64,000 nucleotides of DNA, from assembly GCF_029392895.1 (NCBI RefSeq), contig NZ_CP114200.1:248001-312000 (forward strand), in the 5' to 3' direction. The notes under the pieces are model-generated. The model saw nothing but the letters and a program-made list of their open reading frames with translations, searched no databases and was not told the origin of the DNA. Positions 25,964 to 59,107 of the stretch are shown piece by piece. Numbering within the stretch: the stretch's first letter is position 1; every line of letters begins with the position of its first letter. Origin of the DNA: Streptomyces sp. 71268. GTDB taxonomy: Bacteria; Actinomycetota; Actinomycetes; Streptomycetales; Streptomycetaceae. A program made the position numbers and the translations under genes.

Positions 25964-25975
25964 CGGGGGCTCCAT

Positions 25976-40044: not shown

Positions 40045-40050
40045 CGCGTA

Positions 40051-41079: not shown

Positions 41080-41105
41080 GAGGGGCTCCTGGAGTTCGGG
41101 GTGGG

Positions 41106-43591: not shown

Positions 43592-43819
43592 CGGGTCCCC
43601 TGTCTGTTGGTCTGCCGTCCGTTCCGCCGGGGTGGCGGAAAGCATCCGTACGGGGGTTCGTACCCCGCCGGGCGCGGGGTGGCCCGTCACGTGCGCCTTG
43701 TCGCCGTTTACGCGCCGCGCGCGCGGGCGCACACCGAACGAGCCGCCCGACAAGTCGGGCGGCTCGGGCATTTGACGCGGTTCATGCGGGCGGGAACGCC
43801 CCACGGGGGCCACCGGACA

Positions 43820-44812
43820 CTAGACGGCATGCGCCTCGATGACGGACTGGCCGTACCCGTCCTCGCGATTCTCGGCCACCGGACGGGTACGACGCCCCGG
43901 TACGCGCACCGAGGCCCGCTTGAGCCAGCGGTCGGTGCCGTCGTAGCGGGCCCGGAACGGCACCCTGCCGTGCACGACGAGGTCGTTGTCGAGCACGAGC
44001 ACCTCGCCGGGGTCCAGGCTCACCGCCATCGACACCCGCTCCAACTCGGCCTCAAGGCGCGCATAAGCGGCGCGGTAGGCGTCCCCGGCGCGCTCCAGCG
44101 GGGTGTAGGCGGGGTCGAAGCGCAGGGTGAGGCCGCGCTCGCCGCGCCAGAGCGTGGGCACGGCGGGTTGGCTCCCGGAGACGTCGCGGGCCTGGGTGTA
44201 CGCGTCGTCGGGCAGGATGGGCAGTTCGGCCTCGCACAGGGTCGCGATGTCCGCCTCGGCGAGCCGTACGCGCCGGACGCTGGCCGCGGTGGTGGCGATG
44301 TGGTCGTGGTTACGCATGCAGCCGAGCAACAGCAGATGGGCCCGCCCCGGGTGGAACGCGTCCTCGGTGTGCGGGCTGAGCAGGACGTTGCTGCTGGCCC
44401 CGGTCTGCTTCTGCTCGTGGCCGGGCGCGGGAACGATGTTGTGGACGAAGCGGCCCTCCTGCTGCCCCTCCCAGGCGATGGGGTTGCCCATCGCGCTGGC
44501 GAGCAGGAGTAACACCAGGTCCCAGAGGGCGCCCGAGTCGCCGGCCTTGGCCCAGCTCTCGGGGGTCGCGCCGACCTCGACGTCGTCGACGGGCAGCCCG
44601 CGCAGGACGTAGAGCCCGTGATCGGTGTCGACCGGCCGACAGTGGTCCCGGGTGGCCTGGCTGAGGCGGGCCGCGGCACCGGCGACGCGGCGCAGCAGTT
44701 CGGGCGAGGTGGCGGAGGTTCCGCAGTCGGCGAGGATTCGCCGCGCGGCCTGGGTGAGTTCGGTGACGGCGGAGTCATCGAGCTGGCGAACGGGTGCGGG
44801 TCCCGTGGTCAT
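43820..44812 (-). CDS. Fe(II)/2-oxoglutarate amino-acid hydroxylase, VioC/AsnO type
   Basis: Dioxygenase of 330 residues from ATG 44812. Iron ligands appear as His148 and Glu150 (SPHTEDAFHP, the HxE form typical of the VioC/AsnO/OrfP clade) and His281 (VVHGRVPF); Arg299 fits the 2-oxoglutarate anchor. This clade beta-hydroxylates free amino acids such as arginine or asparagine. It is the first gene of the operon, 228 bp before the SbnB-like gene, and the iron-box palindrome lies 157 bp before its start. The likely job is hydroxylation of an amino acid building block of the chelator; the substrate is not known. Confidence 0.85.
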   Translation of the reverse strand: MTTGPAPVRQLDDSAVTELTQAARRILADCGTSATSPELLRRVAGAAARLSQATRDHCRPVDTDHGLYVLRGLPVDDVEVGATPESWAKAGDSGALWDLVLLLLASAMGNPIAWEGQQEGRFVHNIVPAPGHEQKQTGASSNVLLSPHTEDAFHPGRAHLLLLGCMRNHDHIATTAASVRRVRLAEADIATLCEAELPILPDDAYTQARDVSGSQPAVPTLWRGERGLTLRFDPAYTPLERAGDAYRAAYARLEAELERVSMAVSLDPGEVLVLDNDLVVHGRVPFRARYDGTDRWLKRASVRVPGRRTRPVAENREDGYGQSVIEAHAV

Positions 44813-44969
44813 GGGCAAGGTCGTCCGTTCCGGTGAAGGGATGGGAAGCGGCCCAGGCGTGACACGGCCACCCATGGGCGCACCGAGGCACGACGGCTCC
44901 CGACGGACGGGTGAACAGGCCACCAGCAGCCCGTCGTTGGCGTCGTGGAACGCCGAGAACTTACCACCC

Positions 44970-44994: not shown

Positions 44995-45598
44995 TTCCCT
45001 GTGTCACTACATCCCGCTCCACTGGCCTAAAAGCGGAAATCGTCGTGTTGACGTCTCGGCCAACGAGCGGCTATACGGGTGCTGTTGACGCCACGTCACT
45101 TGTCGGGCATTGAGCCGGTTGCTCCTCCCCTCCGCACGCGTCACGCCCCCGCCCCTGTCACATCGCGTCACCCACCAACTCGCCTCCCACCCAGGCCACA
45201 TGCGCCGGCTGGCCGAAAGCCCACGCCCACGGCGCCCGCCAACGACGACCTGTCGCACGCTGGCGCGGTGCACAGCAAGTCACCCCAACGCGCCAACCGG
45301 ACGCGGTACTTCGCGTTGCCCGAGGGCGCGCCGCCCGCGTTGCCACGCCCTCACGCCCCCCGAGCGCGCGGCGCGCCTGCCCGCGACCCGACGCCCCGAG
45401 CCCCGGCGCACGCCGGCGCGACGGGATGGCCACGGCATGCGAATCCGCCCGTGCCCACTCGCCGCGCCGCCCGGAACATATCGATCCGGCAACGATGATC
45501 ACCATGGGAGGTACCCCCGCGACGCGTCAGCGGTTATGCCACTGGGGCATGTTGCCGGCGCCCCCGATGACCGCGACGGAGGGCATACGGGGAGTCCT
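44995..45598. other. Gene-free region before the second SARP
   Basis: About 600 bp with no supported gene; the open frames are Pro/Arg/Ala-rich artefacts. It should contain the SARP promoter. Confidence 0.5.
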
Positions 45599-46366
45599 AT
45601 GCGATACGAACTACTGGGCCTTATCCGAGTCATCGGCCCCGAGGACACGTCGTACATCACCGCGCACAAGGCGGAGGTCCTGCTGGCCACGCTCCTCGCC
45701 AGGGCCGGCCAGGTGGTCACCGCCGAGCAACTCATCAACGAGATCTGGGGAGACCGAGCCCCCCGCCGCTCCCACGCGGCGCTGCACGTCTACGTCTCCC
45801 AGGTGCGCAAGTTCCTGCGCGCCGCCGGGGACAACGGCCAGTCCATCGTCACCCGGCCACTGGGCTACCTTCTGCGCCTTGGCTCCGACGAACTCGACAG
45901 CGCCGACTTCCAGCGACTCGTGGACGACGGTCGGGAGCGTGTCCGCCTCGGGCGGCACGAGCAGGCGCTGCGCTGCTTCGAGTCCGCGCTCGCGCTGTGG
46001 CGCGGGCCCGCCTTCGACGACGCCCGCGACGGGCCGATCGTCAACGCCTGCGCGACGTGGCTCGAGGAGACCCGGCTGCAGTGTCTGGAGCTGCTCATCG
46101 GGGAGTACCTCACGTTGGGGCGCCACCGCGAGATCGTGGGGCAGCTCTACGCGCTGATCAGCGACCATCCGCTACGGGAGACGTTCTACCGCTATCTGAT
46201 GATGGCGCTGTACCGCTCCGAGCGCCAGGCGGAGGCCCTGATGGTCTACCGGGCCGCCTGCGGGCGGCTGAACGAGGAGCTGGGCCTCGAACCCTGTCGC
46301 CCGCTGCGCGACCTCCACCAGGCCATCCTGGCCGGCGACGACCGCCTAAGCGGGCGGCCCATCTGA
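45599..46366 (+). CDS. SARP-family transcriptional activator (second)
   Basis: Small SARP of 255 residues from ATG 45599, with GGGGAG 4 bases upstream. Winged-helix DNA-binding part (1-95, EIWG and YVSQVRKFL) and activation domain (100-250, ending LNEELGLEPC). It parallels the first SARP along its whole length but has no TTA codon. Its gene ends head-on to the ferredoxin gene of the isonitrile operon and lies beside the iron-box operon, so either may be its target; proximity and the biosynthetic type favour the isonitrile operon. Confidence 0.95.
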   Translation: MRYELLGLIRVIGPEDTSYITAHKAEVLLATLLARAGQVVTAEQLINEIWGDRAPRRSHAALHVYVSQVRKFLRAAGDNGQSIVTRPLGYLLRLGSDELDSADFQRLVDDGRERVRLGRHEQALRCFESALALWRGPAFDDARDGPIVNACATWLEETRLQCLELLIGEYLTLGRHREIVGQLYALISDHPLRETFYRYLMMALYRSERQAEALMVYRAACGRLNEELGLEPCRPLRDLHQAILAGDDRLSGRPI

Positions 46367-46555: not shown

Positions 46556-46771
46556 TCATCCCTCCGTCGGGTCGTCCGCGTCCTCGACCGAGATCACCCG
46601 TGCCGGGCAGTTACGGACGGCGTCCTGCACCGCCTCGTACTGCCCTTCGTCCGGCACCTCGCGCAACACGACGACGACGCCGTCGTCCTCCCGCTGGTCG
46701 AACACGGCGGGCGCCAGGTAGGCGCACATGCCCGACGCCACGCACGCGTCCCCGTCGACCCGGACCTTCAT
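46556..46771 (-). CDS. 3Fe-4S ferredoxin, partner of the adjacent P450
   Basis: Protein of 71 residues. Only three cysteines lie in the cluster positions (Cys10, Cys16, Cys55), with Ala where a fourth ligand would be, which is the 3Fe-4S type used by Streptomyces P450s. ATG 46771 overlaps the last base of the P450 stop (TGATG), so the two are coupled. It delivers electrons to the P450; a ferredoxin reductase must come from elsewhere. Last gene of the operon. Confidence 0.94.
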   Translation of the reverse strand: MKVRVDGDACVASGMCAYLAPAVFDQREDDGVVVVLREVPDEGQYEAVQDAVRNCPARVISVEDADDPTEG

Positions 46772-48033
46772 CAGCCCCGCCCCCTCTCCCGCGGCAGAAC
46801 CTTGTCCCAGGTCACCGGCACGGCCGCGGGGCCGATCACCGGCGTGTTCTTCTTGAACGGCACTTCTTCCACGGCGCTGGCCAGGCGCAGGGACGGAATG
46901 CGACGGGTGAGTTTCTCCAGCACCACCGACAGCTCCAGGCGGGCGGTCTGCTGCCCGAAGCACTGGTGCGTTCCGTAGCCGAAGCCGAGGTGGCCACTCA
47001 TCCGGCGCCCCACGTCGATCCTGTCGGGGTCCTCGAACTCCGCGGGGTCCCGGTCGGCGGCCTGGATGGCCACCACCACGTAGTCGCCCGCGCGTACCGG
47101 CGTGCCACCGATCTCGGTGTCCCGCGTGACCTGACGCGCGATGCCGGCCGCGCCCCCGAAGCAGCGCACGATCTCCTCCACCGCGCTGGGGATGAGTGAA
47201 GGATCGGTCCGCAACCGTTCGTACTGCTCGCGGTAGGCGAGGAGCGCGAACATGCCGTGGGCCAGGGCGGTGGCGGTGGTGTCGAACCCCGCCACCAGCA
47301 TCACCGCGCACATCGACACCAACTCCGCCTCGGTGAAGGGTTCGTTGGCCGCCTCGCTGCGGGCGATGATCCGGCTGACCCCGTCGTCCTGCGGGTCCTC
47401 GCGGCGCGAGCGCACCAGTTGGTAGAGGTAGGTGTGCAGCGGCCGCATCGCCGCCGCCATCTCCGGCTCGGACGTGACGTCGCTGAAGACCGCGGCCGCC
47501 GCGTGGTGGAACAGGTGTCGGTCGGCGTACGGCACGCCGACCACGCCGCTGATCGCCGCGGTCGTGACGGGGACCGTGAAGTCCCCGTAGAAGTCGGCCC
47601 CCGGGCCGCCCGCGGCCAGCGCGTCGATCCGTTCGTCGACGATGGCCTCCACCCGCGGGCGCAGCTCCGCCAGCCGCTTGGGGGTGCCGACCTCGGGGCC
47701 GATGTGGCGGCGGAAGCGCTGGTACTCGGCCCCGTCCATGCGGGTGAACTCGCCCGGGCGCACCGGGCGTCCCGGGTCGGCGTGTCCCATCATGTGCGGC
47801 ACCTGCCCGGTGCGGCTGCTGAACCGCTCCGCGTCGCCGAGCACCTCGCGCACGTCCGCGTAGCGGCTGACCAGCCAGGCCCGCATGCCGGTGGGGCACC
47901 TGACCTGGACGACGGGCGCCTCGACGCGCAGCCGGGCGAAGTCGGGCGACGGCCCGAAGGGACACTCGCCGGGCCGGGGTAGCGGCAGGTCCATCAGGTC
48001 CCGCGGGTCGACGACGTCGGTACGTTGTTCCAT
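46771..48033 (-). CDS. Cytochrome P450 tailoring oxygenase
   Basis: Bacterial class I P450 of 420 residues from ATG 48033 with AGGGAGA upstream. The I-helix oxygen motif is VAGFDTTA (near 237-244), the K-helix ExxR is in AVEEIVR, and the heme-binding loop FGYGTHQCFG has Cys358. The C-helix carries YQRFRR where HTRLRR is usual. It is encoded between the acyl-CoA ligase and the ferredoxin in the isonitrile operon, so it probably oxidises the acyl chain (hydroxyl, epoxide, alkene or ketone). Known isonitrile fatty acids such as amycomicin and aerocyanidin carry an epoxide next to the isonitrile; a similar role is speculation. Confidence 0.94.
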   Translation of the reverse strand: MEQRTDVVDPRDLMDLPLPRPGECPFGPSPDFARLRVEAPVVQVRCPTGMRAWLVSRYADVREVLGDAERFSSRTGQVPHMMGHADPGRPVRPGEFTRMDGAEYQRFRRHIGPEVGTPKRLAELRPRVEAIVDERIDALAAGGPGADFYGDFTVPVTTAAISGVVGVPYADRHLFHHAAAAVFSDVTSEPEMAAAMRPLHTYLYQLVRSRREDPQDDGVSRIIARSEAANEPFTEAELVSMCAVMLVAGFDTTATALAHGMFALLAYREQYERLRTDPSLIPSAVEEIVRCFGGAAGIARQVTRDTEIGGTPVRAGDYVVVAIQAADRDPAEFEDPDRIDVGRRMSGHLGFGYGTHQCFGQQTARLELSVVLEKLTRRIPSLRLASAVEEVPFKKNTPVIGPAAVPVTWDKVLPRERGRG

Positions 48034-48042
48034 CGGTTCTCC

Positions 48043-49596
48043 CTAGGCCCTCTCGCGCAGCGCGCGCCGCAGGACCTTGCCGCCGGCGTTGCGGGGCAAC
48101 TCGTCCACGAACTCGTAACTGCTCGGCATCTTGTAGTCGGCGAGCCGCCCCTTGAGGAACAGCAACAGGTCCCGGGGGCTGGGCCGCTCCCCCTGGCGCG
48201 GCACCACACAGGCGTGCACCGCCTCGCCCCGCACCTGGTGCGGCACGCTGGTCACGGCGACGTCGGCGACCCCGGGGTGTCTGCTCAGGGCGTTCTCGAC
48301 CTCGGCCGGGTACACGTTCTCGCCGGCGACCAGGATCACGTCCTTGATCCGGTCGCAGACGTGCACGTAGCCATCCGCGTCGACGTAGCCCGCGTCGCCG
48401 GTGTAGAGCCACCCGTCGTTCAGGGTGCGCCGGCTCTCCTCGGGGCGCTGCCAGTAGCCCTCCATCACGGCCGGGGTGTCGATGCGCAGCTCGCCGATCT
48501 CGCCGGGCCCGAGGACGGCCCCGTCCGGGCCCACGGCCTGCACCGCGACCCCCGGGTAGGGGCGGCCGGCGGCGCCGAGCCGTGGACTGCCCGGGTAGTG
48601 GTCGGCCGGCGGCAGGCACACGGCCGAGGCGCAGGTCTCGGTGAGGCCGTAGATCTGCGCGAACTCGCAGCCCATGACCTCGATGCAGCGCGCGAGCACC
48701 GACTCGGGCATGGGTGAACCGCCGTAGACGACCTTGCGCAGCCCCGCGAAGTCGGCCGGTCCCACGTCCGGCTCAGCGAGCAGGATCTGCAGCATCGAGG
48801 GCACCATCAGCGCGGTGGTCAGCCCGCCGTCGCGGATCAGCTCCATAGTCCGCTTGGCGTCGAAGCCGGGCACGAGCACGTTGGTGCAGCCGGCCCGGTA
48901 GCCGTGCAGGAACCACCAGGGCCCGCCGATGTGGTGGCCCGGCAGCAGGCTCAGGCTACGGTCGTCCTCGCGCCAGTCGAGCCAGTCGAGTTCGTGGCGG
49001 GCCAGCAGGTCGCTGATCGCCCAGAAGCTGGCCTGGCTGAGCACGACGCCCTTGGGCGCGCCCGTGGTGCCGCTGGTGTACATCTGGGCCAGTGGGTGTC
49101 GCGGGCCGGCCGAGGTGTCCGGGTCGGTGTCGGGGTGCGCGGCCGTCCAGGCCGGGAACCCGTCGCCCGCCTCGCCCTTCTCCAGCGGCACGACCAGGCG
49201 CAGCCGGTCCAGGCCGGAGCGGACGCCCTCGATGGCCGGCAGGTGCTGCTCCTCGGTGAACAGCAGCTCGGCCTGGGCGTCCCGCAGCACGTGCTCGATC
49301 TCGCCCGCGGTCAGCCGCGGATCGGCCGGTACGAGGACGACGCCGGTCTTCGCGCAGGCCAGCAGCAGGTCGTACAGGTGCTCGCCGTCGTGGCCGAGGT
49401 AGCCGATCCGGGTGCCCTGGACGGCGCCGGCCGCGAGCAGCGCGTGGGCGGTGCGGTTGCTGCGCAGGTGCAGCTCCCGGTAGGTGACGGTGCGTCCCTC
49501 GCAGGCGATGGCGAGGTGGTCGGGCCGGATCTCGGCGTGTCGGGCCGAGGCCGCGGCGATGGTACGGGGGCGCTCGCCGGCGGCGGCTGTGCTCAT
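48043..49596 (-). CDS. Acyl-CoA/acyl-ACP ligase (FadD-like AMP-forming enzyme)
   Basis: ANL-superfamily adenylating enzyme of 517 residues. Motifs in order: MYTSGTTGAPKGV (P-loop, near 180), YGLTET (near 315), GWLYTGDAGY (near 397), and the C-terminal PRNAGGKVLRR with the catalytic lysine. ATG 49596 overlaps the PKS stop (ATGA). In mycobacterial isonitrile lipopeptide clusters a FadD10-type ligase loads a fatty acid onto an ACP. Here it may supply the starter to the PKS or reactivate the free acid product. It is an acyl ligase rather than a typical NRPS A domain. Substrate not resolved. Confidence 0.9.
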   Translation of the reverse strand: MSTAAAGERPRTIAAASARHAEIRPDHLAIACEGRTVTYRELHLRSNRTAHALLAAGAVQGTRIGYLGHDGEHLYDLLLACAKTGVVLVPADPRLTAGEIEHVLRDAQAELLFTEEQHLPAIEGVRSGLDRLRLVVPLEKGEAGDGFPAWTAAHPDTDPDTSAGPRHPLAQMYTSGTTGAPKGVVLSQASFWAISDLLARHELDWLDWREDDRSLSLLPGHHIGGPWWFLHGYRAGCTNVLVPGFDAKRTMELIRDGGLTTALMVPSMLQILLAEPDVGPADFAGLRKVVYGGSPMPESVLARCIEVMGCEFAQIYGLTETCASAVCLPPADHYPGSPRLGAAGRPYPGVAVQAVGPDGAVLGPGEIGELRIDTPAVMEGYWQRPEESRRTLNDGWLYTGDAGYVDADGYVHVCDRIKDVILVAGENVYPAEVENALSRHPGVADVAVTSVPHQVRGEAVHACVVPRQGERPSPRDLLLFLKGRLADYKMPSSYEFVDELPRNAGGKVLRRALRERA

Positions 49597-52500
49597 CGCC
49601 GTTCTCCTTCCGTGGCCGCGGTGAGCTGGCCGTCGATGAACTCGCCGAGGAGCGAGACCGAGGGGTGGTCGAAGACGCTGGAGGCGGAGAGGGGCAGCCG
49701 GAAGCACAGCTCCAGCGCGTTCTTGAGCTCCACGGCCGCCAGCGAGTCGAGGCCGACCTCGAAGAACCGGGCGTCGGGTGGCACGTCGTCGGCGCCGTCG
49801 AAGTGCAGCAGGTCGGCGATGACGCCGCGCACCACGAGCGACACCCCCTGGCGCCGCTCCGACCGGGAGAGCTGGAGCAGCGCGTCGAGGTCGACGCTGA
49901 CCGCGTTCTGCTTGGCGCGGCCCACCTGGTGGTAGAGGGCGTTGGGCAGCGGCCTGGTGGCCACGCACTGGTCCCAGTCGACCTCGGCGATGGTCACCTG
50001 GGCCGGCGGCCGGTCGAGCAGCCGGATCAGCGAGCGCATGCCGACGGTGGGCTTGAAGAAGCCGAAGCCCTGGTGTTCGACGTTGGCGATGTGCTGTTCG
50101 TCCATGGTGGCGGCGAGCCCGATCTCGCCCCAGGCGCCCCAGTTGACGCTCATGCCCACCTGGCCCGCCGCGCGGCGCCGCCACATCAGCGTGTCCAGGT
50201 AGGCGTTGCCCGCCGCGTAGTTGGCCTGTCCGCGCGAGCCGAGCACGGAGGTCAGCGACGAGTATCCGATGAAGAACCGCAGCTCGGGGTGTGAGGCCGC
50301 CTCCTGGTGCAGCAGGTGGGTGCCGTAGACCTTGGCGCCGAAGACGGTGTCGATGCTCTCCCAGGTCTGCGCGGTCACCGGCGCGTCGGCCAGCACCCCG
50401 GCGGCGTGCACGATGCCGCCGAGCGGCTGGGGCCGCTCGCGCAGGGCCGCGCTGACCCGTCGTACGTCGTCGGCGACGCTCACGTTGGCGGCGTAGGCGA
50501 CGACCTCGACGTCGGGGCCCAGCCGCCGCTGGAACTGGGCGAGCTCGGCCTCGGCGGGCGTGCGCCGTCCCATCAGGGAGATGTGGCGTGCGCCGAGGCT
50601 GACGAGCTTCTCCGCCGCGAGCTGTCCCAGGGAGCCGAAGCCGCCGGTGATCAGATAGGTGTGGTCGGGGCCGACCTCGGCCGGTGGGGGCTCGGGGAGT
50701 TGCTCGTCCTCGAAGGCGAGGACGGCCTTGCCGGTGAGGGCGCCACGACTGACGGCGCCCAGCGCCTCGTCGATCTCGTCGAGGGTGTAGACGGTGGTGG
50801 GCAGCGGCGCGAACTCCCCGCTGGCCACCAGCTCGGCCAGGGTGCCCAGCGCCTCCCTGGCCAGCTCAGCGGTGCGCTCGGCCGAGACGTCGGTGTAGTC
50901 GGTGTACGTCACGTCGGGCCTGGCCCGCGCGACCTCGTCCGCGCTGAGCAGGCCGACCTTGCCGAGTTCCACGAAGTGGCCGCCGGGCGCCAGGGCCCGC
51001 AGGCCCACCTGGGCGAAGTCCTTGTCCAGGTTGTTGATCAGCAGGTGTACGCCCTCGCCACCGGTGGCGCTGAGGACCTGGTCGGCGAAGTCGTGGCTGC
51101 GCGAGTTCATCACGTGCCGGACGCCCTGTTCGCGCAGGAGCGGCCACTTGTGCGGGCTCGCGGTGGCGTAGACCTCGGCCCCGGCGAGTTGCGCGAGCCG
51201 CACCGCGGCCTGTCCGACGCCGCCGGCCGCGGCGTGGATGAGGACGCGGTCGCCCTTCCTGACGCCGGCCAGGCGGTGCAGCACGTGGTGGGCGACGAGG
51301 AAGGCCGTGGGCAGCGCGGCCGCCTGGGCGTGGGTGAGGCCGACGGGCTTGCGGGTGGCCTGCGCCGATTCGACGGTCACCTGACGCCGCAGGCTACCGA
51401 GGTGGGCCACCATGACCTCGTCGCCGACCTCGAAGGAGGCCTCGGGCCCGGCCGCGACGACCTCGCCGGCGCACTCCTGGCCGAGCGGCAGCTCCAGTGG
51501 CCCGGTGCCGGCCTCCTCGGCGAAGACCCGGTGCAGCCCGAGCACGTTGAACACGTCCTTGAGCGAGAGCCCGGCCGCGCGCACCCGTACCCTGATCTCG
51601 CTGCCCCGGGGCTGCGGCTCCTCCTGGAGCGGGGCGGTGACGACCCCGGAGAACTGGCCGTACTCCTTGACGACCAGCTCGACGTCGTCGCTGGTCGGGC
51701 CGCCGACGCCGGTGTAGACGCGGCGCACGTGGCGCAGCCCGGAACGGTAGGCCACCTGGTACTCGGTGGAGTCCTTGGCGGCCCACTCGTCCAGCAGCGC
51801 CGCGTAGCCCCCGGCGGAGCGCGGTGGCAGGTCGACGAGGGTGACGCGCTGGGCGGGGTACTCGGTCCACATGACGTGGCCGAAGCCCCAGAGCGTGGCC
51901 GAGGCCCAGGTCTCGTGCTCCTGTCCCGGCTCCGGCCGGTCCCCCGGTACCCACTGTCCGCCCTCGGTGACCAGCCACAGCCGCTGGTCGCGGCCGAACC
52001 CGACCTCCTCCAGGGCGTCCCGCAGGGCGAGCAGGTCGCGGTAGTTGCGCTCGCACTCGGAGCGCAGCGACTCGTCCGGGTCCCGGCGCGGCTGCCAGAA
52101 CCAGCACACGTCGGTGGGGTGCCCCTCGCGCAGCGGCCTCCCGGCCTCGGCGGCGCTGGGCACGACCGTGAGGGTGACGTTGCGTTCCTTGGCGGGCTCG
52201 GCCAGCTCGGTGACACCGTCCGGGCCCGGGCCGATGAGCAGCGCGTGCCGGGGCTCGGGGTCCGCCGCGCGCAGCGAGCGCTTGACCCAGCGCACCTCGG
52301 AGTACATGCGGTCGCGGTCCGCCGTCGCGCCCGCGACCTGGCGCAGGGTCAGCCGCTCCATGACGAACACGGGGCGGTCGCCCTCCAGGACGAGCAGGTC
52401 GAGCACGGGCCCGGGCGGCTGCTCGGGCGCCGTGTCGCCGTCCGCCGTCGCGGCCGTCGCTTCGGGGTCCGGCGTCACCAGGCGCAGCACGCTGCGGAGC

Positions 52501-55500
52501 GTGGCCCCGCGCGGCTTCTTCAGCAGTCGGCAGCTCCTGATCCCCACCGGCATGGCGACCACGTCGCTGTCGCCGCGCAGGGCGGCCAGCGTCTGGAAGG
52601 CGCAGTCGAGGATGGCGGGCGGCAGGTACTCGGGGCTGGCCTCGTCCTGTCCGCGCAGCTCACCGATGGCCAGGTCGGGGCCGTGGGCGGTGGCCTGGGT
52701 GAGGCCCTGGAAGAGGGGCCCGTAGTCGACGCCGATCTCGGCGAAGTCGGCGTACAGCTCGTCGGCGGTGAGTCGCGTGTGGGGCTCGCCGTCCTGCTGG
52801 GCAAGCTCGCGCAGGTGCCGCTCGGTGCCGGCGAGGGTGTCGGTGGGCTCCGCGCCGAGGACGGCGGTGACGTGGCGGCGCTCGATGGCCTCGGTGTTCG
52901 GCTCCTCGCCGGGCAGCAGGCTGACGATCTCGACGTCGGCCGTGCCGTCGGGGCGCGGGGTCCACCGGGTGCGCATCTCGACGCTGCCCTCGTCGGCGAT
53001 GAGCAGCGCCTCGTGCAGGCTGACGCCGGTGATGGGCAGGTTGCTCTCGCCGAGTACGGCGTCCTGGAGGGCGATCAGCATCTCGACGTATCCGGCGCCG
53101 GGGAAGACGATCTTCCCCATCACCTTGTGGTCGGCGAGGTAGGCGGGCCGGTCGCCGCTGACGCGCGAGGTGAACTCGCGAACGCCCGCCGCGCGTTGCT
53201 CGGCCGTGGAGCTCTCCTTGCCGAGCAGCGGGTGACCGCCCGAGCCGCCGCCGGCCGTGGGCAGCGCGGCGGGGGCCGGCAGCCAGTGGCGGCGCCGGTC
53301 GAACGCGTAGGTGGGCAGGGTGATCCGGCGGCGCTCGCGCCCTCGGTGGTGTTCGGCCCAGGCCACGGGCGCGCCGGCGGTGTAGAGCTGGGCGAGCGCC
53401 TGGCGGGTGACGGTGGCGTCGGCGTCCTCGGCGTGCAGGCTGTTGAGCCAGGTGTGGCCGGCCGCGTCGTCGAGGCACTGCTTGCCCATGCCGATCAGTT
53501 CGGTGGCCGGGCCGCATTCGAGGAAGACGTGCCGGCCGCGTTCGGCGATGGCCCGCATGCCGTCGGCGAACCTGACGCCCTCGCGCAGGTGGCGGGCCCA
53601 GTAGTCGGGCGTTGAGATCTCCGCGGGGTTGGCCACCGTGCCGGTCAGGTTGGAGATCAGCGTGAACTCCGGCTCGTGGAACGTGAGTTGGGAGACGACC
53701 TCGCGCAGTTCGCGGGCCGCTTCGGCCATCAAAGGCGAGTGCGAGGCGCAGGAGACGGCGAGCCGGCGGTTCTTGATGCCCCGCTCGGTGAGCTGGCGCT
53801 CCACGAAGGCCAGCGACTCCTTGTCGCCGGACAGGACGAGTTGGCGGGTTCCGTTGACGGCGGCGATCGACAGCTCGGGGTGGCCTTCGAGGAGGCCGGA
53901 GACCTCGGCGACGGATGCCTCGACGGCGGCCATGGCACCCGGCGGTGAGGCGTCCATCAGGCGGGCCCGGGCGGCCATCAGGGTGACGGCGTCCTCCAGC
54001 GTGAACAGGCCGGCGACGGTGGCCGCGACGATCTCACCGATGCTGTGTCCCGCGAGCACGGCGGGCCGTACCCCCCACGAGAGCCACAGCTTGGCCACCG
54101 CGTACTCCAGCGCGAACAGGGCCGGCTGCATGTAGCTGATCTGGTGGATCAGCTCGGCGTCGTCGGTCTCGCCGAGAATCATGGCGCGGATCGAGCGGCC
54201 CAGGTGCGGGGCGAACAGCCGGTCGCACGCGTCCAGGTGGTCGCGGAAGACGGCGAAGCGTTCGTAGAGCGGCCGTCCCATGCCCACGTACTGTGTGCCG
54301 CCCCCGGAGAAGAGGAACGCCACCTGGGCCGCGCCGGCCGCGGGGCCGCTCTGGCCGGCCTTGGCCAGGGCGCGGTCGAGCAGCCGGGTGACGTCGTCGT
54401 GGTCGCGTACGACGCCGGCCACCCGCAGCGGGAAGTGCGCGCGGGCGACGTTGCTGGTGTAGCACAGGTCGCCGATGTCGGTGTCGGGCTGGTTGCGCAG
54501 CATCCGCTGGTAGCGCTGGATCTGCCCGGTCAGCGCGGGCGCGGACTTGGCGGACAGGGTCAGGACGTGGCCGCCTCCGTCGTCCTCGGCGACCTCGGGC
54601 TCCACGGGCTCGGGGGCCTCTTCGAGGACGACGGAGGCGATGGTGCCGGTCAGTCCGAAGGAGTTGACCAGGGCCCGCTTGGTCTCGGCCGTCCACGGGT
54701 GGGCCTTGGTGGGCACGGAGACGGGCGCCCGCTCCCAGGGGATGCGGGTGGAGGGCGTGGTGAAGTTGAGGTGCGGGAAGATGGTGGACTCGCGCATCTG
54801 GAGCGCGGTCTTGACGAGTCCCCCGATGCCCGCCGCCGATTCCATGTGCCCGATGTTGGTCTTCAGCGAACCGATGGTGACCGGGTCGCTGGGGCTGTGC
54901 GACTCGCTGAAGACCGAGGTGATCGCGCCGATCTCGATCGGGTCGCCGAGCGGGGTGCCGGTGCCGTGCGCCTCGATGTACGAGATGTCGTGCGGGCGCA
55001 TCCCGGCCGCCTCAAGGGCCCTGCGCATCAGCCCCTCCTGCGCGGTGCCGTTGGGCACCATCAGGGAGCTGCTCTCGCCGTCGGAGCCGACGGCGGAGCC
55101 GCGGACCAGGGCGTAGATCCGGTCGCCGGCGCGCTGCGCGTCGGAGAGTCGCTTGAGGACGAGCGCGCCGCCGCCCTCGCTGCGGCAGTAGCCGTTGGCC
55201 GACTCGTCGAAGGTCTTGCAGCGGCCGTCGGGGGCGAGCATGTTCGACTGGCTGGCCAGGATGTAGGGGCGCGGGTTCACGATGGCGTTGACGCCGACGC
55301 ACAGCGCCACGTCCGTCTCGTCCTGGCGCAGCCCCTGGGCCGCGAGGTGCACCGCGACCAGTGAGGCCGAGCAGGCGGTGTCGATGGTCATGCAGGGCCC
55401 GCGCCAGCCGAGGAAGTAGGACAGCCGGCCGGAGACGGCGCTGAGCGCCGCGCCGGTGGGCATGTAGCTGTTCAGCTCCTCGTGCGCGTACGCGCCCATC

Positions 55501-55961
55501 TCGCCCGCGTAGTCCGTGTTGCTGACGGCGACGTACACCCCGCCACGGCCGTGGCGCAGCGGGCTGGGGTCGATGCCGGCGTCCTCCAGGGCCTCCCAGG
55601 CGGTCTCCAGGGTGAGCCGCTGCTGGGGGTCGATGTAGTCGGCTTCCTTGGGCGAGACGTTGTAGAACTTCGCGTCGAACTGGTCGATGCGGTCCAGGAA
55701 CCCGCCGCGCTCGCAGCGGATGACGCCCTTGGCCTCCGGGTCGTCGGAGGTGAGGCCCTCCGGGTCCCACCGGTCGGTGGGCAGCTCGCGCAGTCCGGAC
55801 TGGCCGGTGCGCAGGAATTCGGCGAATTCGTCCGGCGCGTTGCTGCCGCCGGGAATGCGGAGTCCGATGCCGACGATGGCGATGGGTTCGGGTGCGGTGC
55901 CGGGCGCCGCGGGGTCGGAATTCGTGGCGCGTTCCCGCGTTTCGGTGTCGTGAGGTGACAT
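49593..55961 (-). CDS. PKS C: single-module fully reducing type I PKS (KS-AT-DH-ER-KR-ACP)
   Basis: Stand-alone highly reducing synthase of 2,122 residues. ATG 55961 is chosen because AGGAG lies just upstream; an ATG at 56000 lacks one. Approximate order by residue: KS 22-455 (TACSAS, Cys197; both catalytic His motifs present), AT 570-870 (GHSIGE near 639), DH 925-1190 (HKVMGKIVFP), ER about 1470-1730 (AAAGGVG near 1583), KR 1770-1990 (TGGFGSLG; Ser, Tyr and Asn present), ACP with GLDS near 2071. No thioesterase. The KS ends in GTIASVVL rather than GTNAHVVL, and the AT has SGGGTQ for GQGSQ and CASH where HAFH or YASH is usual. One full module suggests iterative chain building. It lies between the Rv0098-like gene and the ligase in one operon. 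Confidence 0.95.
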   Translation of the reverse strand: MSPHDTETRERATNSDPAAPGTAPEPIAIVGIGLRIPGGSNAPDEFAEFLRTGQSGLRELPTDRWDPEGLTSDDPEAKGVIRCERGGFLDRIDQFDAKFYNVSPKEADYIDPQQRLTLETAWEALEDAGIDPSPLRHGRGGVYVAVSNTDYAGEMGAYAHEELNSYMPTGAALSAVSGRLSYFLGWRGPCMTIDTACSASLVAVHLAAQGLRQDETDVALCVGVNAIVNPRPYILASQSNMLAPDGRCKTFDESANGYCRSEGGGALVLKRLSDAQRAGDRIYALVRGSAVGSDGESSSLMVPNGTAQEGLMRRALEAAGMRPHDISYIEAHGTGTPLGDPIEIGAITSVFSESHSPSDPVTIGSLKTNIGHMESAAGIGGLVKTALQMRESTIFPHLNFTTPSTRIPWERAPVSVPTKAHPWTAETKRALVNSFGLTGTIASVVLEEAPEPVEPEVAEDDGGGHVLTLSAKSAPALTGQIQRYQRMLRNQPDTDIGDLCYTSNVARAHFPLRVAGVVRDHDDVTRLLDRALAKAGQSGPAAGAAQVAFLFSGGGTQYVGMGRPLYERFAVFRDHLDACDRLFAPHLGRSIRAMILGETDDAELIHQISYMQPALFALEYAVAKLWLSWGVRPAVLAGHSIGEIVAATVAGLFTLEDAVTLMAARARLMDASPPGAMAAVEASVAEVSGLLEGHPELSIAAVNGTRQLVLSGDKESLAFVERQLTERGIKNRRLAVSCASHSPLMAEAARELREVVSQLTFHEPEFTLISNLTGTVANPAEISTPDYWARHLREGVRFADGMRAIAERGRHVFLECGPATELIGMGKQCLDDAAGHTWLNSLHAEDADATVTRQALAQLYTAGAPVAWAEHHRGRERRRITLPTYAFDRRRHWLPAPAALPTAGGGSGGHPLLGKESSTAEQRAAGVREFTSRVSGDRPAYLADHKVMGKIVFPGAGYVEMLIALQDAVLGESNLPITGVSLHEALLIADEGSVEMRTRWTPRPDGTADVEIVSLLPGEEPNTEAIERRHVTAVLGAEPTDTLAGTERHLRELAQQDGEPHTRLTADELYADFAEIGVDYGPLFQGLTQATAHGPDLAIGELRGQDEASPEYLPPAILDCAFQTLAALRGDSDVVAMPVGIRSCRLLKKPRGATLRSVLRLVTPDPEATAATADGDTAPEQPPGPVLDLLVLEGDRPVFVMERLTLRQVAGATADRDRMYSEVRWVKRSLRAADPEPRHALLIGPGPDGVTELAEPAKERNVTLTVVPSAAEAGRPLREGHPTDVCWFWQPRRDPDESLRSECERNYRDLLALRDALEEVGFGRDQRLWLVTEGGQWVPGDRPEPGQEHETWASATLWGFGHVMWTEYPAQRVTLVDLPPRSAGGYAALLDEWAAKDSTEYQVAYRSGLRHVRRVYTGVGGPTSDDVELVVKEYGQFSGVVTAPLQEEPQPRGSEIRVRVRAAGLSLKDVFNVLGLHRVFAEEAGTGPLELPLGQECAGEVVAAGPEASFEVGDEVMVAHLGSLRRQVTVESAQATRKPVGLTHAQAAALPTAFLVAHHVLHRLAGVRKGDRVLIHAAAGGVGQAAVRLAQLAGAEVYATASPHKWPLLREQGVRHVMNSRSHDFADQVLSATGGEGVHLLINNLDKDFAQVGLRALAPGGHFVELGKVGLLSADEVARARPDVTYTDYTDVSAERTAELAREALGTLAELVASGEFAPLPTTVYTLDEIDEALGAVSRGALTGKAVLAFEDEQLPEPPPAEVGPDHTYLITGGFGSLGQLAAEKLVSLGARHISLMGRRTPAEAELAQFQRRLGPDVEVVAYAANVSVADDVRRVSAALRERPQPLGGIVHAAGVLADAPVTAQTWESIDTVFGAKVYGTHLLHQEAASHPELRFFIGYSSLTSVLGSRGQANYAAGNAYLDTLMWRRRAAGQVGMSVNWGAWGEIGLAATMDEQHIANVEHQGFGFFKPTVGMRSLIRLLDRPPAQVTIAEVDWDQCVATRPLPNALYHQVGRAKQNAVSVDLDALLQLSRSERRQGVSLVVRGVIADLLHFDGADDVPPDARFFEVGLDSLAAVELKNALELCFRLPLSASSVFDHPSVSLLGEFIDGQLTAATEGERR

Positions 55962-56000
55962 GGCTCCTGCTCTGAAGTTCACACAGTCCGTGCCGGGCAT

Positions 56001-56564
56001 TTACGCGGCCCGAGTTCGCGTCGTCCGCACGGCGAGCCGCACGCCGCCGTGACAGGCGGGCATTTCCTCTTCGCCGTAGCGGCACAGCGTGCTGACGAGG
56101 GCGATCGAGCCGTCGTCGCCGTCGCGTTCGTCGATTCCGACGACGTCGATCTCTCCCCAGAAACCGCGCCCGCGCATGGCACGCCGAAAGGTGCTGCGGA
56201 AGTCGACGATGAGGATGTCGGGGAGTTGCCTGTCCCAGAACTCGTCGAGCGTCCAGGTGCTGAACGGCCACATGACGCGTTCTTTCACGGACTTCGCCAG
56301 CAGGTAGTAGACGAGCTGGTTGAAGCACAGGTTGAACTCGACCGAGTTGAAGTGACCGGTGTCGTCGATGTAGCACGACTCGGGAATGCTGAATTCCCCG
56401 CGCGCGCTGACCCGCCCACCGTCTCGGGGTTCGCCCTGGCGCGTGACGGTGGCACTCTTGAGGTATCGACAGTGGGGTTTGTACGGGGTGAGGACCCGCT
56501 CAAGCAGTCGCCCGTCGCTGCCGTACTCGACGGACCGCGGTGCGGCGGGGGTCATGAGATCCAC
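56001..56564 (-). CDS. Rv0098/FcoT-like hot-dog protein (glycine adduct-forming thioesterase homologue)
   Basis: Protein of 187 residues, the length of mycobacterial Rv0098 (FcoT). The central HFNSVEFNLCFNQLVYYLLAKSV region (about 68-90) and the FRSTFRRAMRGRGFWGEI strand resemble the FcoT hot-dog fold. GTG 56564 follows AGGGG and starts 9 bp after the oxidase stop. In isonitrile lipopeptide pathways the homologue (ScoD in my memory) promotes addition of glycine to an alpha,beta-unsaturated acyl-ACP, giving the N-carboxymethyl beta-amino acyl substrate of ScoE. Its position right beside the ScoE-type gene copies the Rv0097-Rv0098 order. A plain thioesterase role, releasing the PKS C chain, is the alternative, and both may apply. 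Confidence 0.82.
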   Translation of the reverse strand: MDLMTPAAPRSVEYGSDGRLLERVLTPYKPHCRYLKSATVTRQGEPRDGGRVSARGEFSIPESCYIDDTGHFNSVEFNLCFNQLVYYLLAKSVKERVMWPFSTWTLDEFWDRQLPDILIVDFRSTFRRAMRGRGFWGEIDVVGIDERDGDDGSIALVSTLCRYGEEEMPACHGGVRLAVRTTRTRAA

Positions 56565-56573
56565 TGCGTCCCC

Positions 56574-57479
56574 TCAGCGACCGTCGGCCGTCTGCTGGGC
56601 GCCGATGCCGGCGTAGAACTCGTACTCGTCGTGCACGGTGACCCGGTGCGAGACGGTGGGCTCGGGCTTGACCGTGTGGCGGGCGCAGTGCACGAGGCTA
56701 CGGTTGTCCCAGACGAGGAGGTCGCCCTTGTCAAAGGTCTGCAGGTGGATGTTCTCGTGCTGGAAGGTCGGGTCGGACTGGCCGACGGCGGCGAGCAGTT
56801 CCCGCAGCAGCCCGTCGGGCAGCGGCGTGCCGTCGGCCTGCTGGAGTTCGTAGGTGAACGCCTCGCTGATGTACAGCAGCGGCTCGCCGGTGACCGGGTG
56901 CGGGAAGACCGTGGGGTGGGTGACCGCCGGGGTCTGCTCCTCGATCTCGGCGAGCACCTCGGTGATCGGTCGGTACACGTCGTCGGGGCGGATCTTGAAG
57001 TACCGCCGGACGCTGTTGCGGCTGCGCGTCCCCGCGATGGCGTTCTTCATCTCCCGGGGCAGCTTCTGGTACGCCTTGCCCATGTCGATGAAGTAGGTGC
57101 CGCGGTTTTCCCGGGGTACCACCTGGGGGTAGATGAGCGTCAGCCCGAACGGCCGGGCCATGAACGAGTAGTCGTGGTGCCAGAACTTGCCGGTCTGCGG
57201 CACGCCGATTTGCTGGCCGGATTCCCGCACATTCGAGGAAACGAAGATTTCCTTGTGCTCCGGGTGGTGGTACATGGGCTGGTAGTAGGTCTCGACCTCA
57301 CCCAGCCGCCGCCCGAAGGTGACGAATTCGGCGGGCGAGAGGTGTTGCTCCTTCAAGACCACGATCTTGTTCCGGTAGACCTTTTCCTTGAGCGCGACGA
57401 GATCCTCGTCCGGAGCGTTCAGAACGTCGAGCTCCAGAGCCACGCCCATGGCGGCGTCCGTTTGTGGTGCGGTGGTCAT
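56574..57479 (-). CDS. scoE: ScoE/Rv0097-type isonitrile-forming Fe(II)/2-oxoglutarate oxidase-decarboxylase
   Basis: Non-heme iron enzyme of 301 residues. ScoE and Rv0097 convert a 3-(carboxymethylamino) fatty acid to the 3-isonitrile acid by two oxidations and loss of CO2. The residues I recall for ScoE (Tyr96, Tyr97, Tyr101, His132, Asp134, Arg157, Lys193, His295, Arg310) map to Tyr65, Tyr66, Tyr70, His101, Asp103, Arg126, Lys162, His264 and Arg279 here, all at the same offset of 31. They sit in [38 protein letters not shown] and SHRV. It is the first gene of the operon; ATG 57479 follows GGGGGAGA. A TauD-type oxygenase with another substrate is unlikely given this full conservation. Confidence 0.9.
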
Positions 57480-58081
57480 ATTCTCCCCCAGCGGCGAGCC
57501 GGTTGGTTTAACAATGCACTGGCTCTACCACCGTTCAGCAGCGGGCTTAGGGCAACCTTGCAGCTCGCTGAAACGGAGGGGTGATCTCACCAACAGGCGT
57601 TCGGGGGGCAGGTGAGCGGATGCCGCCTTTTGCCTTGGGCCGTATGGGCCGTGCCCCAGTCGGCGCACCCGGACGCGACCGGACTATATGTCACCCGTAC
57701 GAGTGGACCAGGGGTTCAGCGGCGCGACGCCGCGCCGACGCCTTGGGCAGGCCAATCACCTCGGAGTTCGGTGCGCCGGGGCGCGCGGGAGCGGAAGGGC
57801 GGGCGCGCAGCGGGCAGTGCGATCGGCGAATTCCCTGATACACCTGTCCCCTGCGCCGGATCAGCGCGCGACGTGTGGACGCGTGGGGCGTTGGGCAGTC
57901 AGTCCCCCAGCGCACGCCCGCCGCCATCCTCTTCACCCGCGATAGCCGCCCGATCCGCGTGCCACCCGCCACTGCGCCACCGGACCCCGGGGCGCGGGTG
58001 TGTCCCCCGGCCCGTTCCGCGCCGGCCCAGCGCCGTTCGCGCGTACGCCGCCCACCACCCAGCACAGATGAGGAACTCCCC
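57480..58081. promoter_or_regulatory. Divergent control region of the isonitrile operon and the methyltransferase gene
   Basis: A 602-bp gene-free gap. It should carry the promoter of the six-gene leftward operon and that of the rightward methyltransferase. GTTCAGC (near 57534) and GCTGAAAC (near 57576) form loose arms close to the oxidase gene. SARP-type heptamer repeats could not be identified with confidence. Confidence 0.45.
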
Positions 58082-59107
58082 GTGAAGATCCGAACGTTCA
58101 CCAAGCTGGTGCGCAGCAATCACCTCTCACTGGCCATGCGGATGCCGCGGGAGCTCGCCGGCCCCGCGTACCGCGCCTCGTTCCTGGCCGCGGCCGCCAA
58201 CAGTGGCGTGCTGCGCCATCTCGCGCGGCAACCGCTCGACGCGCCCGCGCTCGCCGACGAGCTGGGCATGCACGGTGAGGAGCAACTGCTCGGCGTCTGG
58301 CTCGACATGGGAGTGCGGCTCGGAGAACTCGGCTCGCGCGGCGGGCGCTACCGGCTGCGCGGCCGCCTGGCCAAGTCGCTGGCGCGGCCGGAGGCGGACG
58401 CCTACGTGGCGCTGCTCGAACAGCTCATGCGCTTCCACGCCCCACTGCTCCTGGACGCCCCCGACATGCTGCGCGAAGGGCGTCGGGTGTCGATCGCCGA
58501 CCAGGACGGCGCGCTCATCGCCCGCTCGTCCCGTGTCCTCGAACCCGCCGTGCAGGGCGTGGTGGAGCAGCAGGTCGACCGGAACTCACCGGTCCGGCTC
58601 CTGGAGGTGGGCTGCGGCAGCGGCACCTACGTACGGCACGCCGCCTCGCTCAACCCTCGGCTGACGGCCGTGGCGATCGACCTGCAGGACGAGGTGGTGG
58701 CGCAGGCGCAGGCGAACCTGGACAAGTGGAACCTGTCCGACCGGGTGGAGGTCGTCCGCAGCGACCTGCGGACGTACTCGACGGAGCAGAAGTTCGACCT
58801 GGTCACGCTGCACAACAACATCTACTACTTCCCCCACGGTGAGCGGACCAAGGTGCTGGAGCGGGCGCGCTCGTTTCTGATGCCCGGCGGCAAGCTGCTC
58901 CTGACGACGAGTTGCCAGGGTGGCGGCCCGGGCATGGAGATGCTGAACCTGTGGTGCGCGTACGCCGACTTCGCCGGCCCGCTGCCGCGCCCGGCCGAGC
59001 TGTTGGGGCAGATGCGGGACGCGGGCTTCACACAGGTGCGCTCCCGCCGCCTGGTGCCCGGCGAGGAGTTCCGGGCCTTCGTCGGCACCTGCCCCTTCGA
59101 CGACTAG
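58082..59107 (+). CDS. SAM-dependent methyltransferase next to the isonitrile operon
   Basis: Class I methyltransferase of 341 residues. GTG 58082 follows GAGGAA. An N-terminal helical, winged-helix-like part (about 20-110) precedes the SAM domain with EVGCGSGTY near 172-180, VAIDLQDEVV near 198 and DLVTLHNNIYYF near 239. The build resembles small-molecule O- or C-methyltransferases. It is divergent from the ScoE-type gene, and a tailoring role (methyl ester or methyl ether on the isonitrile product) is plausible but unproven. It may equally be a separate gene. Confidence 0.85.
   Translation: MKIRTFTKLVRSNHLSLAMRMPRELAGPAYRASFLAAAANSGVLRHLARQPLDAPALADELGMHGEEQLLGVWLDMGVRLGELGSRGGRYRLRGRLAKSLARPEADAYVALLEQLMRFHAPLLLDAPDMLREGRRVSIADQDGALIARSSRVLEPAVQGVVEQQVDRNSPVRLLEVGCGSGTYVRHAASLNPRLTAVAIDLQDEVVAQAQANLDKWNLSDRVEVVRSDLRTYSTEQKFDLVTLHNNIYYFPHGERTKVLERARSFLMPGGKLLLTTSCQGGGPGMEMLNLWCAYADFAGPLPRPAELLGQMRDAGFTQVRSRRLVPGEEFRAFVGTCPFDD

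What the first reader, a model, noticed from the sequence alone, without database searches (positions are those of the whole stretch)
46556..57479. Isonitrile-forming enzymes fused genetically to a reducing PKS: a likely isonitrile polyketide pathway
A ScoE/Rv0097-type oxidase and an Rv0098-type protein are adjacent and lead a six-gene operon. In known isonitrile lipopeptide clusters they sit beside a ligase, a free ACP and an NRPS. Here the NRPS and free ACP are absent and a stand-alone KS-AT-DH-ER-KR-ACP, a ligase, a P450 and a ferredoxin take their place. Gaps are 9, 39, -4, 9 and -1 bp, so it is one transcript. Model (inference): PKS C builds an enoyl chain on its own ACP, the Rv0098-like protein adds glycine at the beta carbon, ScoE makes the isonitrile, and the P450 adds an oxygen. 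The product would be a free isonitrile fatty acid or polyketide, related in kind to amycomicin or aerocyanidin.
Basis: partly seen in the sequence, partly recalled or inferred. Interest (0 to 1): 0.95.

Follow-up and report, generated by a model that had tools for sequence, protein, structure and literature searches.

The report
Isonitrile-making polyketide operon in Streptomyces
Six co-directional genes in a Streptomyces chromosome very probably build a polyketide or fatty-acid chain and put a rare, reactive isonitrile group on it; the set is conserved in several species and looks like an unstudied sister of the cluster that makes the antibiotic amycomicin.

Summary
On the minus strand, 57479-46556, lie a ScoE-type oxidase, ScoD/FcoT-type protein, KS-AT-DH-ER-KR-ACP, ligase, P450 and ferredoxin, tightly spaced. 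The oxidase passes NCBI's ScoE cut-off and keeps nine of nine ScoE residues checked, so isonitrile formation is well supported. The same six genes, in order, occur in six other genomes. The genome also has a separate NRPS-type isonitrile cluster.

The arrangement is not unprecedented: PMC9967187 lists a predicted amycomicin cluster with one KS-AT-DH-ER-KR-ACP, and 12 of 51 FcoT loci among 394 Streptomycetaceae genomes have ScoE, ScoD and a PKS gene together. The window's PKS is sister to those of amycomicin-like loci (44-51% identity). New here: no free ACP beside ScoD, one P450 of another subfamily with a ferredoxin, and an AT motif CASH (CAAH in one of seven) instead of HAFH, predicting a branched extender. 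Product, chain length and P450 chemistry are unknown. New variant of a known kind.

The parts
56574..57479 (-). ScoE-type Fe(II)/2-oxoglutarate oxidase/decarboxylase, 301 aa, first gene of the operon
   Evidence: NF049937 466.9 bits vs cut-off 400; PF02668; best PDB hit ScoE 6dch, 62% identical over 286 aa; Y96, Y97, H132, D134, R157, K193, H295, H299, R310 of ScoE all conserved
56001..56564 (-). ScoD/CmiS1/SAV606-type FcoT protein, 187 aa (GTG start): predicted glycine Michael addition and thioester release
   Evidence: PF10862 186.7 bits; NF049938 195.6 bits, below its cut-off of 250; nearest PDB 5wsy/5wsx (SAV606 by recall; the file says uncharacterized protein), then Rv0098; YIDDTGHFNSVE region kept
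49593..56000 (-). Stand-alone PKS KS-AT-DH-ER-KR-ACP, 2135 aa (a second possible start at 55961), no TE
   Evidence: Pfam domains; motifs intact in all six domains, AT GHSIG...CASH
48043..49596 (-). Acyl-activating ligase, ScoC-type homologue, 517 aa
   Evidence: PF00501/PF13193; 48-55% identity to lipopeptide-cluster ligases and 51-59% to amycomicin-like ones; six-type ligases on one side of a branch, SH-aLRT 100
46771..48033 (-). Cytochrome P450, 420 aa
   Evidence: PF00067; nearest NCBIfam pentalenolactone synthase 207.7 bits, far below cut-off 700; heme motif FGYGTHQCFG; orthologues 62-96% in the six sister loci
46556..46771 (-). Ferredoxin, 71 aa, likely P450 partner
   Evidence: PF13370/PF13459; three cysteines; orthologues 54-97% in all six sister loci
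45110..46366 (+). SARP-type regulator (domains at residues 190-407, so the true start is probably later); convergent with the operon; a possible regulator, not part of the conserved core
   Evidence: PF03704 + PF00486; 86-99% over 115-285 aa in S. zagrosensis and S. buecherae, 41% near the S. boncukensis locus, not found in L056, L063, L064

Best explanation
The operon makes an isonitrile-bearing polyketide or branched fatty acid. Steps: (1) the single PKS works iteratively, its KR and DH giving an enoyl chain on its own ACP, its ER saturating the earlier rounds; (2) the ScoD-type protein takes the enoyl chain off the PKS before ER acts, adding glycine at the beta carbon and hydrolysing the thioester, which also explains why the PKS has no thioesterase; (3) the ScoE-type oxidase turns the N-carboxymethyl group into an isonitrile; (4) the P450 with its ferredoxin oxidises the chain; (5) the ScoC-type ligase activates either the starter acid or the isonitrile acid. 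Because the AT carries CASH instead of HAFH, the chain is probably alkyl-branched. Shown by sequence: gene content, order, conservation, intact catalytic motifs, family membership of ScoE. Inferred: every reaction on the real substrate, iteration, ER bypass, extender identity, ligase and P450 roles.
For: ScoE is above the equivalog cut-off, and nine ScoE residues are kept in 43 of 43 rows aligned, the window included; Y96, K193, R310, R157 and H299 have roles in ScoE (passages of PMC7949033). A ScoD homologue acting on a PKS-made enoyl chain with no TE has a precedent in cremimycin: CmiS1 adds glycine and hydrolyses (passage of PMC11284099). Six genes, same order and strand, in six further genomes. 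Six-type rows are on one side of a branch in the KS (100/97), ligase (SH-aLRT 100) and ScoD (SH-aLRT 84) trees, and in the ScoE tree with 98/92 or, without TauD rows, 92/61. Catalytic motifs of KS, AT, DH, ER, KR and ACP intact. AT CASH in 6 of 7 six-type PKSs and CAAH in 1, against HAFH in 6 of 6 amycomicin-like PKSs; CASH in the iterative PKS TueB was read as ethylmalonyl (passage of PMC5518548).
Against: No product or expression data. ScoD scores below the NCBI equivalog cut-off (195.6 vs 250). The ER motif looks active, so nothing in the sequence shows how an enoyl is spared. The AT serine motif is GHSIG: the YASH ATs all have GHSQG and the HAFH ATs GHS(I/V/L)G, so the extender call is uncertain. 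No free ACP is seen for the ligase. The ScoD tree puts six-type with some PKS-linked ScoDs (SH-aLRT 87) but leaves three amycomicin-like ones (L047, L048, L052) and L017, L024, L034 elsewhere. Crotonyl-CoA carboxylase/reductase is in 10 of 10 genomes tested, amycomicin-like ones included, so it says nothing. One relative, G373 (L058), keeps ScoE, ScoD and ligase but has a shortened 498-aa PKS and no P450 or ferredoxin in the 20 kb held.
Confidence: 0.72

Rival explanations
1. It is simply an amycomicin/aerocyanidin-type cluster: same PKS, same chemistry, same sort of straight-chain isonitrile product, with fewer tailoring genes.
For: Same domain order as the PKS of the predicted amycomicin cluster in PMC9967187; PKS 44-51% identical to amycomicin-like PKSs (over 1,412-2,292 columns), KS clades are sisters with 100/100 support.
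Against: All 6 amycomicin-like loci have a separate ACP-like match next to ScoD (41-100% to that of L030), whereas matches at six-type loci are weak (30-35%) and coincide with the PKS's own ACP; an extra ketosynthase of the L030 kind is in 2 of 6 amycomicin-like loci (L030, L048) and in no six-type locus. P450 only 31-34% identical to P450s of L030, L034 and L048; AT CASH/CAAH against HAFH; separate groups in KS and ligase trees, less firmly in the ScoE tree. The amycomicin sequence itself was not available here.
Confidence: 0.3
2. The ligase, not the PKS, supplies the acyl chain: an alpha,beta-unsaturated fatty acid is activated and loaded on the PKS ACP, ScoD and ScoE act as in the lipopeptide pathway, and the PKS extends afterwards.
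For: The ligase is a ScoC-type homologue. L058 keeps ScoE, ScoD and ligase while its PKS is shortened.
Against: No free ACP for loading in the operon; ScoD of this type releases its product from the carrier (PMC11284099), which would leave nothing bound to extend; the PKS motifs are kept in all seven complete loci.
Confidence: 0.15
3. Beta-amino acid starter pathway as in cremimycin: ScoD makes the N-carboxymethyl beta-amino acid, which is then converted to a beta-amino acid for a larger polyketide.
For: ScoD groups with ScoDs of PKS loci that lack ScoE (weakly); a modular PKS lies near the left end of the window.
Against: An intact ScoE gene leads the operon, and the operon has no CmiS2-like FAD enzyme; the five PKS loci of this other kind have no ScoE in the 20 kb held. 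The nearest other PKS is 27 kb away.
Confidence: 0.04
4. Metal-binding isonitrile lipopeptide (chalkophore) relative with a peptide part made elsewhere in the genome.
For: Such clusters share ScoE, ScoD and ligase; this genome has one of its own about 6.1 Mb away, with a C-A-PCP-reductase NRPS (L014).
Against: No NRPS or metal transporter among the window genes that were scanned, which were not all genes; lipopeptide ScoEs and ligases group apart.
Confidence: 0.05

Closest known systems
Amycomicin biosynthetic cluster (and the related antibiotic aerocyanidin, recalled)
   Same: ScoE-type isonitrile chemistry with one KS-AT-DH-ER-KR-ACP (domain order of a cluster predicted as amycomicin in PMC9967187, passages) and P450 tailoring (PMC13273461 cites Zheng et al. 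for AmcQ, AmcB and P450s AmcC/D/B, passages). Amycomicin-like loci L030, L048, L052, L070, L071 (and L047, which has no ER) share ScoE, ScoD, ligase and a PKS in the sister KS clade.
   Different: Six-type: one P450 of another subfamily plus ferredoxin; no separate ACP by ScoD; AT CASH/CAAH, not HAFH. That L030 and kin are amycomicin clusters is inferred from layout and from 67% ScoD identity to an S. virginiae protein.
Isonitrile lipopeptide clusters (ScoA-E type)
   Same: ScoE, ScoD and ligase homologues; ScoE 62% identical to S. coeruleorubidus ScoE and 60% to the copy in the same genome's lipopeptide-type cluster (L014).
   Different: No NRPS, no free ACP, no KASIII; a PKS, P450 and ferredoxin instead.
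Cremimycin beta-amino acid starter pathway (CmiS1/CmiS2)
   Same: A ScoD-family protein that takes a PKS-made enoyl chain, adds glycine and releases it (PMC11284099, passages).
   Different: There the next enzyme is an FAD dehydrogenase giving a beta-amino acid; here it is a ScoE-type oxidase.
Iterative PKS TueB of the thiotetronate Tu 3010
   Same: Single iterative module with AT motif CASH (PMC5518548, passages).
   Different: No ER, has a cyclisation domain, makes a thiotetronate; no isonitrile enzymes mentioned in the passages seen.

Membership tests
ScoE family (isonitrile-forming oxidase/decarboxylase) | Score over the curated NCBIfam cut-off | tested here: met
   466.9 bits vs 400
ScoE family (isonitrile-forming oxidase/decarboxylase) | 2-His-1-Asp metal site and substrate/2OG residues Y96, Y97, R157, K193, H299, R310 | tested here: met
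   All nine positions kept in the window protein and in all 43 rows; Y101 and R195, also named in PMC7949033, were not checked
ScoE family (isonitrile-forming oxidase/decarboxylase) | Makes an isonitrile from an N-carboxymethyl beta-amino acid | not testable with these tools
   Needs enzyme assay
ScoD/CmiS1 (enoyl-ACP glycyltransferase) | FcoT family | tested here: met
   PF10862 186.7 bits, cut-off 27
ScoD/CmiS1 (enoyl-ACP glycyltransferase) | Score over NF049938 cut-off | tested here: not met
   195.6 vs 250 bits; it is therefore called ScoD-type, not ScoD
ScoD/CmiS1 (enoyl-ACP glycyltransferase) | Conserved core shared with 5wsy (SAV606 by recall) and P0114 (of the cremimycin strain by recall) | tested here: met
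   YIDDTG-H-N-VE-N-C-NQ core kept; the catalytic residue list of SAV606 was not available
Isonitrile lipopeptide (ScoA-E) cluster | NRPS beside ScoC-D-E and free ACP | tested here: not met
   No NRPS or free ACP in the operon
Amycomicin-type cluster | ScoE-type enzyme with one KS-AT-DH-ER-KR-ACP | tested here: met
   amycomicin domain order from PMC9967187
Amycomicin-type cluster | Malonyl-type AT ('ATm' in PMC9967187; HAFH in amycomicin-like loci) | tested here: not met
   CASH
Amycomicin-type cluster | Several P450s, as in AmcB/C/D | tested here: not met
   One P450 in the operon, 33-34% identical to the two of L030
Amycomicin-type cluster | Direct sequence comparison with amc genes | not tested

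The most novel reading that the evidence does not exclude
A separate family of isonitrile-forming iterative polyketide synthases in which ScoD acts as the chain-length gate, pulling a 2-alkyl-2-enoyl chain off a fully reducing PKS before its ER acts, so that the product is an alpha-alkyl-beta-isocyano, alkyl-branched acid: a branched isonitrile polyketide class not met in the paper searches.
Probability: 0.27. Interest if true: 0.65.

Novelty: new variant of a known kind. Interest (0 to 1): 0.48.

Why it matters
Isonitriles are rare, strongly metal-binding and often strongly antibacterial (recalled); amycomicin, from a related kind of cluster, inhibits FabH with an MIC of 30 nM (PMC13273461, passage). 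A conserved six-gene set with its own PKS clade and a changed extender motif is a compact, testable source of a new isonitrile chemotype, and tests how a reducing PKS hands an enoyl chain to a glycine-adding releasing enzyme. It also suggests that ScoE-ScoD pairs were joined to PKS genes more than once: L017 and L024 carry ScoEs that fall among lipopeptide ones, with modular-type KSs.

Tried and rejected
Rejected: the neighbouring minus-strand operon 44923-38581 (2OG hydroxylase, SbnB-like, decarboxylase, SbnA-like, MATE) as part of the pathway. Of the six-type genomes, S. zagrosensis has only a 24.7-bit hydroxylase match, AJS327 and S. boncukensis none, NP-1717 matches of 41% and 35% identity elsewhere, and in G340 the homologue lies 263 kb from the isonitrile genes; only S. 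buecherae has it beside them. Rejected: the divergent methyltransferase at 57875-59107 and the flavin genes beyond as core, because the methyltransferase is found only in S. buecherae and S. zagrosensis among the loci held, which share the region by synteny. Led nowhere: crotonyl-CoA carboxylase/reductase search (10 of 10 genomes); P450 search over 394 class genomes, which at E 1e-100 found only the window's own, with 4 candidates scored per genome in the rows shown; plasmid search, three hits, two of them opened and both NRPS-type. No structure prediction was run, since 62% identity to solved ScoE made it redundant. The TauD outgroup (three of the genome's eight TauD-family places) had branches of 8-10 changes per column and one row fell among the ScoE rows; without them the support for the six-type side fell from 98/92 to 92/61, though the six-type rows stood apart from the other labelled groups in 200 of 200 bootstrap trees. 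Seven unlabelled database rows, all on the six-type side of that branch, were in that tree.

The gene caller used for neighbourhoods (GC-frame based) missed some true genes, such as the ligases of L056 and L065, which tblastn then found; class counts rest on tblastn. L044 ends at a contig edge and was counted as unclassified. L058 meets the PKS criterion through a separate KS several kb away; its own operon PKS is the remnant. The label 'macrolactam' in my scripts (L045, L049, L050, L051, L053) is a guess from PKS plus FcoT without ScoE. The small ACP of the lipopeptide cluster L014 gave no Pfam match at 1e-5; it is called ACP by its place, as annotated in a plasmid relative. Of the class-level FcoT genomes (10 of 394), G000, G052 and G086 were already held, five (G580, G586, G675, G698, G710) were fetched, and G536 and G696 were not. 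In L072, L073 and L075 my cut-offs found nothing.
Full report
Setting. The window is bases 248001-312000 of an 8.38 Mb single-contig genome. Its closest named relatives at this locus are Streptomyces buecherae AC541 (94% ScoD identity) and S. zagrosensis (88%).

The six genes. Boundaries and gaps were read from the sequence and domains assigned with Pfam and NCBIfam. The lead gene is a ScoE by NCBI's curated model (466.9 bits, cut-off 400). ScoE's structural paper gives roles to Y96, K193, R310, H299 and R157 (passages of PMC7949033); together with Y97 and the H132/D134/H295 site, all nine are kept in all 43 aligned rows, the window included. The eight six-type ScoEs differ from 23 lipopeptide and amycomicin-like rows at eight positions by my criterion (uniform in six-type, another letter in at least 85% of the 23), among them A133H between two metal ligands, E98Q next to Y97, G238A and I294V. 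Their effect is unknown.

The second gene is an FcoT protein below the curated ScoD line (195.6 vs 250 bits). It keeps the core shared by 5wsy (SAV606 by recall) and by P0114, from a strain that I recall as the cremimycin producer. A review states that CmiS1 adds glycine to a PKS-made enoyl chain and hydrolyses the thioester, that the cremimycin starter PKS has no TE, and that CmiS1/SAV606-type enzymes also serve isonitrile pathways (passages of PMC11284099). The window's PKS also has no TE.

Conservation. Searching FcoT in 394 Streptomycetaceae genomes gave 51 places in 44 genomes. The window and 50 fetched loci were classified by tblastn: 31 with NRPS (lipopeptide type); 1 at a contig edge (L044); 12 with ScoE, ScoD and a PKS ketosynthase (window, L054, L056 complete six-type; L058 with a shortened operon PKS; L030, L048, L052, L047 amycomicin-like; L017, L024, L034, L036 other); 5 with PKS but no ScoE (L045, L049, L050, L051, L053); 2 with neither (L059, L060). 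A scan of named genomes with the window's ScoD gave 7 loci, 5 six-type and 2 lipopeptide type. Complete six-gene sets besides the window: S. buecherae (L054 and L061 are the same genome), S. zagrosensis L062, Streptomyces sp. AJS327 L063, sp. NP-1717 L064, S. boncukensis L065 and G340 (L056; its contig length equals that listed for Streptomyces sp. LX-29). Order and strand are the same in 6 of 6. The capped hit lists share further contig lengths, for example a Catenulispora contig of 14,935 bases, so the set may reach other families; this was not opened.

Phylogeny. In the KS tree the seven six-type rows form one group (100/97), sister to the six PKS ketosynthases of amycomicin-like loci (94/87; union 100/100), away from modular KSs, including those near the left end of this window. 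The ligase and ScoD trees, made by the quick method without an outgroup, put the eight six-type rows on one side of a branch (SH-aLRT 100 and 84). In the ScoE tree the branch has 98/92 with TauD rows and 92/61 without. Identity of the window's PKS is 44-51% to six amycomicin-like PKSs over 1,412-2,292 columns (the 1,412 are L047, which has no ER) and 35% to the window's modular PKS over 923 columns. In contrast, ScoEs of L017 and L024 fall among the lipopeptide ones while their KSs lie with modular ones, which suggests a second pairing of ScoE with PKS genes.

Is it new? A published table lists a cluster predicted as amycomicin with a single KS-ATm-DH-ER-KR-ACP (PMC9967187, passages), and PMC13273461 (passages) places amycomicin clusters among type I PKS clusters and cites three P450s. 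What differs: one P450 of another subfamily plus ferredoxin; no separate ACP, whereas 6 of 6 amycomicin-like loci have an ACP-like match beside ScoD, and 2 of 6 an extra ketosynthase of the L030 kind; and the AT motif. Six of seven six-type ATs read CASH and one CAAH; six of six amycomicin-like ATs read HAFH. In the iterative PKS TueB, CASH was judged unlike malonyl (HAFH) or methylmalonyl (YASH) and consistent with ethylmalonyl, and that PKS is said to use one propionate and two butyrate units (PMC5518548, passages). The serine motif GHSIG is malonyl-like, so I rate a branched extender likely but not shown. Searches of the paper library (listings, of which searches showed 30 of 1,447, 20 of 24 and 20 of 28 papers) returned nothing that I recognised as describing this six-gene set; the library lacks most subscription papers, and the amycomicin paper was not held.

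Mechanism. The ER motif is intact, so an enoyl chain must be spared. The simplest reading is that ScoD intercepts the enoyl-ACP before reduction once the chain fits ScoD, setting chain length and release together. This is inference. The ligase branch leading to the six-type rows is long (0.68), in keeping with a changed partner, since no free ACP is present; starter loading and product activation cannot be told apart here.

Neighbours. The same genome has a lipopeptide-type cluster at about 6.45 Mb (L014), with its own ScoE, ScoD, ligase, KASIII, MFS exporter and a C-A-PCP-reductase NRPS. The SARP gene between the isonitrile operon and the next operon persists in S. buecherae and S. zagrosensis and may regulate it; the next operon is not conserved with it.

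Noticed in passing
window 38581-44923 (minus strand): A second small operon: VioC/GntD-like 2OG hydroxylase (GntD model 241 bits, cut-off 345), SbnB-like dehydrogenase, PLP decarboxylase of the lysA/ornithine type, SbnA-like PLP enzyme (233 bits, cut-off 350) and a MATE exporter, beside the SARP gene. It looks like a diaminopropionate-type pathway; homologous hydroxylases are 68% in G339 and 61% in G340.
   Followed up: partly
window about 1026-19344 (minus strand): A modular type I PKS near the left end, with four KS domains, ATs of YASH and HAFH type, and a SARP gene at 9298-10221.
   Followed up: no
L058:6683-11203 (G373): Relative with open ScoE, ScoD and ligase frames, but the PKS is a 498-aa open frame: DH and part of ER match, a 32-aa piece of KS, no AT or KR match; no P450 or ferredoxin found. 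Apparently a decayed copy.
   Followed up: partly
L017, L024: ScoE and ScoD with a KASIII gene beside modular-type PKSs; their ScoEs fall among lipopeptide ones, which suggests a second pairing of ScoE with PKS.
   Followed up: partly
L065:5590-7040 (S. boncukensis): An ACP and a ketosynthase gene in tandem upstream of a six-type operon, with a SARP gene between: a possible starter-supply pair; whether other six-type loci have one was not searched specially.
   Followed up: no
L083 and L084 (Streptomyces clavifer and Halotia branconii plasmids): NRPS-type isonitrile clusters on plasmids, one in a cyanobacterium; the Streptomyces one has a heavy-metal ATPase and a copper chaperone gene upstream.
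   Followed up: no
window 25046-26026 (minus strand): A lytic polysaccharide mono-oxygenase gene (LPMO_10) between the two gene-cluster regions.
   Followed up: no
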